From NCBI GenBank assembly GCA_019359375.1, contig JAHHHL010000003.1, positions 62,001 through 126,000 on the forward strand: a stretch of DNA of 64,000 nucleotides. Direction: 5' to 3'. Shown piece by piece: positions 11,524-18,612 of this stretch; positions within the stretch are counted from its first letter, which is position 1, and each line of letters begins with the position of its first letter. The stretch comes from Lyngbya sp. HA4199-MV5. Lineage in GTDB: Bacteria; Cyanobacteriota; Cyanobacteriia; Leptolyngbyales; Leptolyngbyaceae. The notes beneath the pieces were generated by a model. The model saw only the letters and a program-made list of their open reading frames with translations, did no database searches and was not told the DNA's origin. The position numbers and the translations under genes are program-made.

Positions 11524-12762
11524 TCAAACACTTTGCCAAACATCATCCCAGGGTGCGCCACCTGTTTCTAGCCCACCACGATCGCTGTATGCCTCTAGTA
11601 GAAGGGTGTGATGCCGGCGATCGTGCAATCGTAGCGTGATGTTCCCCAGCATAGTATCCCGGCAGGCAAAGACCAAACCGTTTGCTGTGGGAGCGCGTAA
11701 CGGGGTGCCCGGACGATCGGTCGTGCCCGTTAACTCAACCGTAAGCTGGCTGGTTTCTGCCCACATGCGCCAATTGCCCCAGGGGTGAATCTCCCAATGC
11801 ACCTGAGCATTCCAGGGCGCAAACTCGTAGAACGTACCGCGATAATGTACCCCAATCATCGCCACCGACTCCATCCACCACAGCACGCCCCGACGACCAC
11901 CGCCTGCTGTCAGCGACAAATCTGGCTCCCCTTCAAAACTATTACAGTTCAGCCAGAACCACTTTTGCGGAAACGCGCCCCCCCAATTTTTTTCGCTATA
12001 GGCTGGCGCATTGTCAAAGGTGTAGCGATCGCCATTCCACTCAATCCAGCCCGTCGCCAGCCCGTGCGCCATCAAAATCTGCCAGCCCGGTTCAAAAATT
12101 TGCAGCGATGAAAGCCATCCCGCTGTCGATTGTTGAAGTCGATCGGCATGACCCCAACCATACACAGGTTGAATGCGATATTCCCACCGTGCTGAAGCTC
12201 CCGACGGTTCATGCAGCATCCCCTGATGCCAGGTTGCCGTTGCCTGATAGCCTTCCTGGATGTGCTGGGTGAAGTGCTCTGGCGGGAGGCAATTAGGAGT
12301 GAGGAGTGAGGAGTAAGGGGTGAGGGGTAAGGGGTAAGGGGTAAGGGGTAAAGGGTAAGGGGTAAGGGGTGAGCCACTTCTGCCTTCTGCCTTCTGCCCT
12401 CTGCCCTCTGCCTCCTGCCTGCCTGCTGCCTCCTCTCCCCTCTCCCCTCTCTCCTCTCTCACCTTCCCCCAATGTCCTAACCCCAATGCGTGTTTCCATG
12501 CCCAGAAGGTGGTGACATCTGGAAACGTGCGGCACAGATATTCATCATGGGGACCCAGGATTTGAGCGGCACCACCACTGTAGGGCTGACCACCGATCGG
12601 GTCTTCGATCGAGTACATGAAGGCAAACGTCTGACCACAATCGGGTAAGGTGACGCGGTAGTACCAGCCTTCAAAGAAGCGGCGATCGCGACCATCCCAG
12701 TGGTAGCCGCTGTGAGGGGTTTGCAGGCGACTGGGATGAGTGAGTGGTAGTGGCAGAGACAA
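11524..12762 (-). CDS. Tocopherol cyclase family protein with in-frame repeat insertion
   Basis: 412 residues, matching the VTE1/Slr1737 tocopherol cyclase family (closes the chromanol ring in vitamin E synthesis). Recognisable blocks are HSGYHWDGRDRRFFEGWYYR at residues 17-36, NWGGAFPQKWFWLNCN and the C-terminal LLLEAYSDRGG. Between residues about 102 and 157 the protein carries a low-complexity segment (QEAEGRGQKAEGRSG, then repeated PLTPYPL) that is encoded by the genome's GGCAGAAG/CCCCTTA repeat and is not part of the family. Without it the length is about 356, the size I expect for this family. Whether the insert is tolerated as a surface loop is unknown. Confidence 0.88.
   Translation of the reverse strand: MSLPLPLTHPSRLQTPHSGYHWDGRDRRFFEGWYYRVTLPDCGQTFAFMYSIEDPIGGQPYSGGAAQILGPHDEYLCRTFPDVTTFWAWKHALGLGHWGKVREERGERGEEAAGRQEAEGRGQKAEGRSGSPLTPYPLPLTPYPLPLTPYSSLLTPNCLPPEHFTQHIQEGYQATATWHQGMLHEPSGASARWEYRIQPVYGWGHADRLQQSTAGWLSSLQIFEPGWQILMAHGLATGWIEWNGDRYTFDNAPAYSEKNWGGAFPQKWFWLNCNSFEGEPDLSLTAGGGRRGVLWWMESVAMIGVHYRGTFYEFAPWNAQVHWEIHPWGNWRMWAETSQLTVELTGTTDRPGTPLRAPTANGLVFACRDTMLGNITLRLHDRRHHTLLLEAYSDRGGLETGGAPWDDVWQSV
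12292..12459 (-). repeat. Low-complexity repeat inserted in frame in tocopherol cyclase
   Basis: On the coding (minus) strand the order is: GAGAGGGGAGAGG-type units, GGCAGAAGGCAGAAG-type units, then AGTGGCT, then tandem CCCCTTA units, then TCACTCC units. The same order, spacing and orientation occur at 16924-17070 inside CruA, in the same reading frame. Length is about 168 bases, a multiple of three, with no stop codon in the translated frame. The plus strand carries a run of GGGGTAA units (12312-12371) with quadruplex potential. Confidence 0.85.
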
Positions 12763-12774
12763 TAGAATAGGACG

Positions 12775-16369: not shown

Positions 16370-16410
16370 CCCGCCTTTTTTAGTTGTTTATGAAAATTTG
16401 GCTCCCCTAA

Positions 16411-18612
16411 ATGAAGGAAGTTCTGTATCTAGAAATCCCGACTCCAGACGTAGATGCGGTCAGAACCTGGCTACAGGAGGAGTTTCAGCCCCAAACAGGC
16501 GTAAAAACGGTCGCCAAAAGTGGCATTCGTCTGATCTTCTCCACCACGTCTCCAGCAGAAACTCAGATGCTAGAGTCCCAGGCGGAGGCGGCAGCCCTGG
16601 CAATTTTTGTCTGGTCGTTGCAGCGGACGACTTATCTCAAAGTGTTTCGCTGGGCTGAGCAACCTGTACCGCACGAAAAGAGCCTGCTGAAGCACCTGAC
16701 GCTTGCCCTGCGCGATCGCTTCCCCAATCACTATCCTCAGCCCCCGACGATCGACCTCTCTCGCCAATCAATCTTCGATGCCCTGACAGAGCCGTATCCG
16801 CAAACTGTGAAGTACTTCCAGAAAATGCCGAACGGGGAGTATGACCTTACCCGCGTGTATTGGTGGGAACAGCGCTGGCGTGAAGGGGTACAGAATCCAA
16901 AGGAGCCTCGACAGGTGGTGTTTGAAAGAGGAGAGGGGAGAGGAGAGAGGGGAGAGGAGGCAGGAGGCAGAGGGCAGAAGGCAGAAGGCAGAAGTGGCTT
17001 ACCCTTTACCCCTTACCCTTTACCCCTTACCCCTTACCCCTCACTCCTCACTCCTCACTCCTCACCCTCCTACGACCTGATCTACCTCGGTGGCGCATTG
17101 GGAGTTATTCACGCGGCGGTGATGGCAAAGTTGGGCTACCGGGTGCTGCTGTTGGAGCGGTTGCAGTTTGGCAAAATGAACCGGGAATGGAATATTTCGC
17201 GCAGCGAGTTTCAGAGCCTTATTAACTTAGGATTATTCACGCCTTCTGAATTTGAAAGTGTAATTGCTAGAGAATATATTGACGGCTTTCACAAGTTTTT
17301 TGATGCGAACAACCCACCGCAGGCAAAAGCACCCGTGCTACATACGCCGACGGTGCTGAATGTCGGGCTGGATGCCGAAAAGCTGCTGCGAGTCTGTGGT
17401 GAGAAGCTCCGTAGCTACGGTGGCGAAATTTGGGATGAAACGGAATTTAGCCGCGTTGAGGTCGATAGCGCTCAGGTGACGGTGGAAGCAAAGCACCTGC
17501 CGACGGGGGTATTGCGATCGGTGAGCGGACGGTTATTGGTAGATGCAATGGGTACCGCATCGCCGATCGCATGGCAACTCAATGGCGGACGTGCGTTTGA
17601 TAGCGTGTGTCCAACGGTTGGAGCAGTGATTGAAAGCGGCTTTGAACCCGGTGTTTGGGATGCACGCTATGGAGATGTGCTGAACAGTCACGGCGACATC
17701 TCACGCGGGCGGCAACTCATTTGGGAACTGTTTCCGGCGGATGGCGAAGCGCTCACCTTTTACCTGTTTCACTATCATCAGGTGCATCCTGAAAATCCAG
17801 GTTCCCTACTGGAAATGTACGAAGACTTTTTTACCATCCTGCCAGAGTATCGTCGTTGCGATCTGGAAAAACTGGTCTGGAAAAAGCCAACGTTTGGCTA
17901 TATTCCAGGGCACTTTACGACGGGGAGGAGCGATCGCCAGGTAGCGTTCGATCGCCTGATCGCTTTGGGAGATGCAGCATCCTTGCAATCACCGCTCATC
18001 TTTACCGGGTTTGGGTCGCTGGTGCGTAATCTTCCTCGCCTGACGCATCTGCTCGACACGGCTTTGAAGCATGATTTACTCAGCGCCAAGCATCTGAACC
18101 AGATTCGCGCCTATCAAAGCAATGTTGCTGTTACCTGGTTATTTTCTAAAGGCATGATGGTGCCGACTGGTCGTAACCTGCCGCCTGAGCGGGTGAATGC
18201 GATGCTGAACACGTTTTTTGGCATTCTGGCAGACCAACCGCCCGCGATCGCCGAAGCCTTCATTAAAGACCGCGTGGATTGGCTCACCTTCAACCGCATG
18301 GCGCTCACAGCCGCCTGGAAAAATCCGAAGCTACTGGTATGGATCTGGGAGATGGCAGGAGCCATAGACCTTGGGCGCTGGCTGGGCAGCTACCTGGACT
18401 TCACCATCAGCGCCTTTGTGAGCAGCCTTGTTAGCGGTTGGTTTCCAGCACTCTTGCGACAAGTACAACCCTGGCTGGAACCACGCTTTCCAGGCTTCTG
18501 GCTGTGGTTGTTGGCGCAAAGCTATGCCGTTACGGATGGAGTTGGGCGACCGCAATCAGCTCAACCTGGAGTCTCTGAAGCTGTTGAAGAGCAGACCCAC
18601 GCACCGATTTAA
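16411..18612 (+). CDS. cruA: CruA-type lycopene cyclase / FAD-dependent oxidoreductase with in-frame repeat insertion
   Basis: 733 residues. An N-terminal domain (1-170) precedes an FAD-binding fold with the dinucleotide motif YLGGALGVIHAAVMAKLGY (about 225-243) and the CruA/CruP family block GKMNREWNISRSE. This family contains the CruA lycopene cyclase of Synechococcus PCC 7002 and its paralog CruP; the GKMNREWN version fits CruA better than CruP, but assignment is not certain. Residues about 172-220 are encoded by the dispersed low-complexity repeat (ERGEEAGGRGQKAEGRSG followed by PFTPYPLPLTPYP) and lie exactly at the junction of the two domains. Probably acts on carotenoids at the thylakoid membrane. 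Confidence 0.82.
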   Translation: MKEVLYLEIPTPDVDAVRTWLQEEFQPQTGVKTVAKSGIRLIFSTTSPAETQMLESQAEAAALAIFVWSLQRTTYLKVFRWAEQPVPHEKSLLKHLTLALRDRFPNHYPQPPTIDLSRQSIFDALTEPYPQTVKYFQKMPNGEYDLTRVYWWEQRWREGVQNPKEPRQVVFERGEGRGERGEEAGGRGQKAEGRSGLPFTPYPLPLTPYPSLLTPHSSPSYDLIYLGGALGVIHAAVMAKLGYRVLLLERLQFGKMNREWNISRSEFQSLINLGLFTPSEFESVIAREYIDGFHKFFDANNPPQAKAPVLHTPTVLNVGLDAEKLLRVCGEKLRSYGGEIWDETEFSRVEVDSAQVTVEAKHLPTGVLRSVSGRLLVDAMGTASPIAWQLNGGRAFDSVCPTVGAVIESGFEPGVWDARYGDVLNSHGDISRGRQLIWELFPADGEALTFYLFHYHQVHPENPGSLLEMYEDFFTILPEYRRCDLEKLVWKKPTFGYIPGHFTTGRSDRQVAFDRLIALGDAASLQSPLIFTGFGSLVRNLPRLTHLLDTALKHDLLSAKHLNQIRAYQSNVAVTWLFSKGMMVPTGRNLPPERVNAMLNTFFGILADQPPAIAEAFIKDRVDWLTFNRMALTAAWKNPKLLVWIWEMAGAIDLGRWLGSYLDFTISAFVSSLVSGWFPALLRQVQPWLEPRFPGFWLWLLAQSYAVTDGVGRPQSAQPGVSEAVEEQTHAPI
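16924..17070 (+). repeat. Low-complexity repeat inserted in frame in CruA
   Basis: About 147 bases, divisible by three, with no stop in the translated frame. Order on the coding strand: GGAGAGGGGAGAGG units, GGCAGAAGGCAGAAG units, AGTGGCT, CCCCTTA units (16999-17040) and CTCACTCCTCACTCC units. It matches the insert at 12292-12459 in order, orientation and reading frame, giving the shared peptide GRGQKAEGRSG and TPYPLPLTPYP in both proteins. Confidence 0.85.

What the first reader, a model, noticed from the sequence alone, without database searches (positions are those of the whole stretch)
12292..17070. The same low-complexity repeat is inserted in frame in two unrelated carotenoid/tocopherol enzymes
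The insert at 12292-12459 (tocopherol cyclase, minus strand) and the insert at 16924-17070 (CruA-type cyclase, plus strand) have the same order of modules: GAGAGG units, GGCAGAAG units, AGTGGCT, CCCCTTA units and TCACTCC units. Both are oriented the same way relative to transcription and read in the same frame, giving the peptides GRGQKAEGRSG and TPYPLPLTPYP in both proteins. Both lengths are multiples of three, and the insertion in CruA falls at a domain boundary. The same units also fill spacers in the window. This behaves like a protein-invading repeat, comparable in concept to the Rickettsia palindromic elements, but it is low-complexity and not palindromic. The stop-free frame and fixed orientation suggest selection.
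Basis: partly seen in the sequence, partly recalled or inferred. Interest (0 to 1): 0.85.

Follow-up and report, generated by a model that had tools for sequence, protein, structure and literature searches.

The report
Heptamer repeats inside housekeeping proteins
A cyanobacterium carries the same class of seven-base repeat arrays in frame inside about thirty proteins in the sixth of its genome that was surveyed, a mismatch-repair protein and DNA ligase among them, and the arrays likely spread by copying between loci and stay only where the encoded peptide is harmless.

Summary
The tocopherol cyclase and CruA inserts are 89% identical copies of one composite array; a third copy lies in frame in a HemN-like gene 20 kb away. 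They belong to a genome-wide class of period-7 arrays. In five whole contigs (1.125 of 6.91 Mb) 39 of 197 clusters lie inside open frames, in 32 proteins, among them MutS, LigA, CarB, Era and a ClpC-like protein.

A heptamer gives the same peptide in every frame, so "same frame" is automatic. The arrays do have palindrome-like order, purine-rich then pyrimidine-rich, and both inserts fold as long RNA hairpins. The inference of selection survives in sharper form: stop-containing units are 8 of 820 in genes against 40% elsewhere, and units open on both strands are read in the hydrophilic direction 480 to 20.

Congeners fill the same loops with different units; CarB is filled only here. Long CruA linkers outside the genus are all tandem repeats, mostly of period 7, 8 or 9.

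I read this as selfish repeats filtered by protein tolerance. It resembles Rickettsia palindromic elements in effect but is not a member. How the arrays copy themselves is unproven.

The parts
11524..12762 (-). tocopherol cyclase gene (412 codons from a TTG)
   Evidence: Pfam PF14249, 524.5 bits; seven of seven genomes of the genus have it
12292..12459 (-). in-frame array in tocopherol cyclase: purine arm (gene sense) about 12377-12460, spacer, pyrimidine arm about 12295-12373
   Evidence: 13 of 14 other-genus rows of the alignment have a short loop without an array here
16411..18612 (+).
   Evidence: 522 relatives by tblastn, best 80 kept, closest 88% identical in Stenomitos rutilans; no Pfam family
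16924..17070 (+). in-frame array in the CruA linker: purine arm 16924-16994, spacer, pyrimidine arm 16999-17065
13345..13457 (.). pyrimidine-rich array of the same class, after the end of the minus-strand frame 13464-13961 (scpB-like, name recalled)
   Evidence: period-7 scan; frames
13973..14025 (.). purine-rich array of the same class, just before the start of the same frame
   Evidence: period-7 scan; congeners carry other sequence there, some of it repetitive
7293..7495 (.). two arrays, purine arm then pyrimidine arm, before the frame that starts at 7516; gene context not examined further
   Evidence: period-7 scan
53269..53464 (.). two arrays, purine arm then pyrimidine arm; gene context not examined
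   Evidence: period-7 scan; tandem repeat finder

Best explanation
The two inserts are copies of one member of a genome-wide class of tandem heptamer arrays (purine-rich arm followed by pyrimidine-rich arm) that is also found in frame in dozens of other proteins, and the class likely spreads by copying between loci and persists in genes only where the encoded peptide is stop-free, hydrophilic and sits in a predicted flexible loop.

Shown: the period of seven, the arm order, the in-frame positions, the shared composite sequence, the stop and hydropathy filter, and recurrent use of the same loops by different units in congeners.
Inferred: the copying mechanism (recombination or template switching between arrays, with slippage to change unit number), the near-neutrality of the peptides, and that the arrays bring the host no benefit.
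For: Class and scale: 229 period-7 arrays in 1.125 Mb; 39 of 197 clusters are spanned by an open frame with 60 or more codons on both sides, in 32 proteins. Of 30 of these 32 scanned, 24 have a Pfam family at or above its cut-off.
Arm order: among adjacent arrays under 300 bp apart, 24 pairs are purine-pyrimidine and 0 the reverse, the rest like or mixed; 42 of 42 clusters with both arms typed have purine first (the typed units were chosen after seeing the data).
Copying: the TC, CruA and HemN-like arrays share AGTGGCT plus both arms within 25 kb; 149-187 nt stretches 88-95% identical link other clusters; best partners within 30 kb number 23 against 10.1 expected, reciprocal pairs counted twice.
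Filter: stop-containing units 8 of 820 in genes against 1886 of 4660 elsewhere in the five contigs, both strands; both-ways-open units 480 hydrophilic to 20; of 71 clusters of 60 bp or more not spanned by a frame, 41 have no open frame on either strand.
Gain: CarB is filled in the own genome and empty in six of six congeners.
Loops: in Era, MutS (two sites), LeuS (larger site) and LigA the insert falls at gaps between blocks aligned to solved structures.
Turnover: the TC-CruA within-species similarity sum is the highest of all 5040 pairings.
Against: No transposase or target duplication is known for it; transposases were not searched and target duplications were looked for only by eye. Of 13 sites compared, 12 are also filled in at least one congener, so many insertions are old and what is seen is mainly turnover. 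TC-CruA similarity is also high in two species where the genes lie on different contigs, so local exchange alone does not explain it. For far-apart sites, same-species similarity hardly exceeds different-species similarity (median 23.5 against 22.0, with some sites missing). One informative cluster of 30, that in CarB, leans to the less hydrophilic direction, and GGGAGTC units are used both ways. There are no expression or protein data. Open frames were called without a gene finder, and three of the 32 (145, 211 and 283 codons, no Pfam family) may not be genes.
Confidence: 0.68

Rival explanations
1. The segments are native flexible linkers that expand locally by replication slippage; there is no dispersal between loci.
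For: The CruA linker is variable in length in all 73 loci parsed and exists as a 10-15 residue linker mostly without repeats in 21 of them; 12 of 13 sites tested are filled in more than one species of the genus.
Against: TC, CruA and a HemN-like gene share one composite, spacer included; similar 149-187 nt matches occur at other pairs of loci; CarB gained a two-armed array in one species only.
Confidence: 0.17
2. They are a palindromic miniature element (MITE or RPE-like) moved by a transposase that recognises the hairpin.
For: Purine-pyrimidine arm order; strong hairpins for the two inserts; arm-wise shuffles fold less well (p 0.017 for 16 genic and 0.004 for 16 other clusters).
Against: Arms are not matched to each other: in 24 clusters own arms pair worse than arms swapped between clusters (-23.4 against -26.9 kcal/mol). 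Arms more often come from different unit families (22 clusters) than from the same (7), with 13 mixed. No common terminal sequence is apparent in the 30 arrays printed.
Confidence: 0.07
3. The inserts are adaptive linkers kept because the peptide or the mRNA hairpin benefits the enzyme or its expression.
For: Retention at the same loops across a genus; strong orientation bias.
Against: Unit identity and length are not conserved; unrelated enzymes share them; near-empty sites occur in congeners (LigA in G004 and G006, MutS site 2 in G006).
Confidence: 0.06
4. Assembly artefact.
For: Tandem repeats are hard to assemble and the genome is a draft of 95 contigs.
Against: Six other assemblies of the genus carry in-frame repeats at several of the same loops, with different units.
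Confidence: 0.02

Closest known systems
Rickettsia palindromic elements (RPE)
   Same: Small repeats in intergenic DNA and in frame inside unrelated conserved proteins (passages of PMC2229807 and PMC10969869)
   Different: RPEs are 105-146 bp palindromes in sequence families with a conserved peptide, with insertions in 19 reading frames told in PMC2229807; here there is no sequence consensus, the unit is a heptamer array, arms are not matched partners, and 39 in-frame clusters lie in 1.125 Mb
STRR heptanucleotide repeats of heterocystous cyanobacteria (recalled, Mazel 1990; not read)
   Same: Tandem seven-base units, many copies
   Different: Units appear different (recalled, not compared); two-armed order; many copies in frame in conserved genes
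G-quadruplex heptamers GGGGA(C/T)T of Nostoc 7120 and GGGNATC of Xanthomonas (Rehm 2015, PMC4692102; abstract and passages read)
   Same: G-rich heptamers; 68% intergenic in Nostoc 7120, so about a third intragenic; under-represented on the coding strand
   Different: That paper reports few inverted pairs in Nostoc; here the arm order is the rule, and one arm carries purine units on the coding strand
Small dispersed repeats of Nostoc (recalled, Elhai 2008; not read)
   Same: Short mobile repeats in cyanobacteria, some lying within heptamer arrays
   Different: Those are defined sequences; a palindrome that may be of that kind sits inside the arrays of G003 but is not the array itself

Membership tests
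Rickettsia palindromic element | in-frame insertion in unrelated conserved protein genes | tested here: met
Rickettsia palindromic element | defined sequence family with conserved encoded peptide | tested here: not met
   units differ between species at the same site and between sites
Rickettsia palindromic element | palindrome with complementary arms forming one stem-loop | tested here: inconclusive
   arm order 42 of 42 and strong folds for the two inserts, but the arm swap test is negative
MITE | terminal inverted repeats and target duplication with a cognate transposase | tested here: inconclusive
   none seen by eye in the flanks of five window arrays or at the CarB site; no systematic search, transposases not searched
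STRR heptamer repeats | tandem repetition with a unit of seven bases in many genomic places | tested here: met
STRR heptamer repeats | the named units of the original families | not tested
   the unit sequences are recalled only; the top units here are listed
G-quadruplex heptamers (Rehm 2015) | unit GGGGA(C/T)T or GGGNATC as the main unit | tested here: not met
   not among the top 40 genic or top 50 other units, which are of GGCAGAA, GGAGGCA, ACACCCC and ACTCCCC type; the GGGGATT unit does occur, as CCCCAAT, in the CruA linker of another cyanobacterium, L055

The most novel reading that the evidence does not exclude
The arrays are scars of double-strand break healing by a telomerase-like process: G-rich heptamers are added to both 3' ends of a break and the ends are then joined, which yields purine-then-pyrimidine order with arms that need not be complementary. 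Protein loops would then be a fossil record of healed breaks, and the constant period of seven with freely changing sequence would reflect the step of the enzyme rather than a template.
Probability: 0.08. Interest if true: 0.95.

Novelty: new variant of a known kind. Interest (0 to 1): 0.72.

Why it matters
Repeat elements living in frame inside conserved bacterial proteins are best known from Rickettsia (PMC10969869, passages). Here a cyanobacterium has, by extrapolation, roughly 200 proteins with in-frame repeat arrays, and enzymes of central metabolism, translation and mismatch repair are among the hosts found. The period of seven makes the peptide frame-independent, so arrays can enter genes in any frame, and the reading direction is filtered for hydrophilic peptides. 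Recurrent, lineage-specific refilling of the same loop (CruA) gives a natural series for testing how proteins tolerate insertions. Annotators and structure predictors should know that such segments are not conserved domains.

Tried and rejected
Hairpin selection as the main cause of the arm order: not supported as a general rule, because own arms pair worse than swapped arms (24 clusters, arms cut to 42 nt), although the two inserts themselves fold very well. Median z over 39 two-armed clusters is only -1.5, with 13 below -2.

Local exchange as the sole cause of TC-CruA similarity: rejected, because two species with the genes on different contigs score 96 and 103, against 202, 107, 56, 31 and 17 in the five linked species.

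CruA linkers as clean evidence for arm order: weakened. Short linkers without repeats already lean purine to pyrimidine (11 of 21 by more than 0.2, none the other way).

The first unit count mixed in loci found with sense-strand queries and one antisense frame, so the genic figures were recounted on the five contigs only. The figure outside genic clusters (1886 of 4660) is and counts every perfect doubled 7-mer there, chance ones included.

The TC loop pattern failed for 17 of 30 loci, among them the own genome, whose loop was read. Of the 13 that parsed, 7 are from other genera. MutS site patterns failed in part. Linker parsing failed for 7 of 80 CruA loci. LeuS passed the cut-off in 6 of 7 genomes. 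The first TC-CruA matrix lacked four of seven within-species pairs and was redone.

The AlphaFold model of the tocopherol cyclase has mean pLDDT 60, so it only shows that residues 98-159 are not confidently structured. The smaller LeuS site (707-718) lies inside an aligned block, not in a gap, and the last residues of the larger LeuS site are aligned to the solved structure.

Literature: full-text searches listed no paper whose title or abstract start describes mass in-frame heptamer arrays in cyanobacterial proteins; only three of the listed papers were opened, and most subscription journals are not held.
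Full report
Setting. The window lies in an unnamed 6.91-Mb draft genome, contig C80.

What is there. The TC insert (12292-12459, minus) and the CruA insert (16924-17070, plus) match at 89%. In the gene sense each runs GGAGAGG-type units, GGCAGAA-type units, a spacer AGTGGCT, CCCCTTA-type units and CTCACTC-type units. 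A third array with the same spacer lies about 20 kb away (C80:54176), also in frame, between the radical SAM and HemN_C domains of a HemN-like gene. The spacer occurs in no other array of five whole contigs.

A genome-wide class. In those five contigs (C55, C80, C82, C84, C86; 1.125 Mb) I found 229 period-7 arrays; each of periods 4-6 and 8-13 gave 0-13. With a slightly lower threshold and merging within 150 bp they make 197 clusters, of which 39 are spanned by one open frame with at least 60 codons on both sides, in 32 proteins (one antisense frame over a TPR gene left out). I scanned 30 of the 32 against Pfam; 24 have a family at or above its cut-off. The two left out cross the ends of fetched stretches. 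Hosts in the five contigs, named from their Pfam domains: MutS (two arrays), LigA, CarB, Era, ClpC-like, ChlD-like, MoeA, a histidyl-tRNA synthetase-like protein, a PanC-Cmk fusion, a P-type ATPase (three) and a TPR protein (five). Twenty further stretches chosen because they had hits add LeuS, MutL, SbcC-like, MutM, squalene-hopene cyclase and others. If the five contigs are typical, the genome holds about 240 in-frame clusters in about 200 proteins; this is an extrapolation.

Two arms. Among neighbouring arrays less than 300 bp apart, 24 pairs are purine then pyrimidine and none the reverse; from 300 to 5000 bp the counts are 7 and 20 (other pairs are of one kind or mixed). Of 42 clusters with both arms typed, 42 have purine first. 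By halves, 44 of 96 clusters of 60 bp or more show the order by more than 0.3 and 2 show the opposite; random windows do so in 0.5% and 0.3%. The order reads the same on both strands, so it is a head-to-head arrangement. It holds in genes (16 of 25, 0 opposite) and elsewhere (28 of 71, 2 opposite), and in 954 kb from other cyanobacteria around CruA (8 and 0, most pairs mixed). The two inserts fold as long RNA hairpins, -70.6 kcal/mol (z -4.57) and -76.7 kcal/mol (z -2.99). Across clusters the folding signal is modest, and arms swapped between clusters pair better than true partners. The arms are thus polar but not matched.

Why frame and orientation looked special. A heptamer array reads the same peptide in all three frames. 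The CruA insert is open in all three sense frames, and each antisense frame of both inserts has 3-5 stops. Selection does appear in the five-contig set: stop-containing units are 8 of 820 unit pairs in genes, against 1886 of 4660 elsewhere counting both strands. Units open in both directions are read in the more hydrophilic direction in 480 of 500 pairs; 29 clusters lean that way, 1 (CarB) the other, and 9 of the 39 give no information. For example GRRQKAE is used and FCLLPSA is not (the latter two with the targeted loci included).

Sites. I compared 13 sites in 9 genes with congeners: TC, CruA, MutS (two), Era, LeuS (two), LigA, CarB, squalene-hopene cyclase and the P-type ATPase (three). Twelve of the 13 are also filled in at least one other species, with different units and lengths, as judged by eye. 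LigA is near-empty in G004 and G006, and MutS site 2 is near-empty in G006. At CarB the own genome has a 73-nt two-armed array with a net gain of 51 nt; six of six congeners have the short native loop. In Era, MutS, LigA and the larger LeuS site the insert falls at gaps between blocks aligned to solved structures. In the TC model residues 98-159 have pLDDT below 50, though the whole model is weak.

Outside the genus. At the TC loop, 6 of the 7 other-genus loci that parsed have 12-24 residues; one (G021) has its own GTCAGGA array. In the protein alignment 13 of 14 other-genus rows lack an array. At CruA, 73 of 80 loci parsed. Of the 68 outside the genus, 30 have linkers of 24 residues or more, and all 30 are tandem repeats against 100 shuffles each, with best periods 7 (11), 8 (11), 9 (5), 14 (1) and 15 (2); of 21 linkers shorter than 16 residues, 1 is; the 17 between were not tested. 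Long linkers share 6.0 11-mers on average with their own flanks and 1.6 with those of other genomes; own flanks exceed 95% of the others in 10 of 30. The linker thus appears to be refilled by each lineage's own repeats. Short linkers already lean purine to pyrimidine, so arm order at CruA alone is weak evidence.

Copying. Besides the three-gene composite, stretches of 149-187 nt at 88-95% identity link other clusters. Best partners lie within 30 kb 23 times against 10.1 expected, reached in none of 2000 permutations, reciprocal pairs counted twice. Within species the TC and CruA arrays resemble each other more, in sum, than under any other pairing of species (1 of 5040), including two species where the genes are on different contigs. 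For other far-apart sites the within-species effect is small.

Reading. The best account is a selfish, rapidly changing repeat class that copies between loci and is tolerated in loops when the peptide is open and hydrophilic. The copying machinery is unknown. What it works like: Rickettsia palindromic elements, in that it enters conserved proteins in frame (PMC2229807 and PMC10969869, passages). What it is: a relative of the heptamer repeats known from cyanobacteria (PMC4692102, abstract and passages), with features I did not find described in the searches named above: arm order as a rule, scale inside conserved proteins and the hydropathy filter.

Noticed in passing
L168:8659-11694, L218:9843-11783, L168:3592-5871, L207:1745-5209, L210:6213-7223: Mismatch repair and other DNA repair proteins (MutS, MutL, LigA, SbcC-like, MutM) are themselves among the hosts; whether this affects repeat stability is untested.
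   Followed up: no
L285 (TC and CruA of G003): Both inserts of Stenomitos rutilans share a nested palindrome-like stretch (around GCGGAAACGCTACGCGAAC) inside the heptamer array, possibly a small dispersed repeat.
   Followed up: partly
L179:9854-15667: A 1938-codon TPR protein carries five separate array clusters in frame.
   Followed up: no
window 53356-53466: A 9-mer array (TTCCTCTGC, six perfect copies) runs straight into a 7-mer array of related sequence.
   Followed up: no
window 63305-63391 and 58305-58411: Longer tandem repeats (42-bp and 30-bp units) not of the heptamer class.
   Followed up: no
L055 CruA linker (Trichocoleus sp. FACHB-40): Most of the linker is a run of perfect CCCCAAT heptamers, the complement of the GGGGATT unit described from Nostoc 7120; likely a young expansion in frame.
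   Followed up: no
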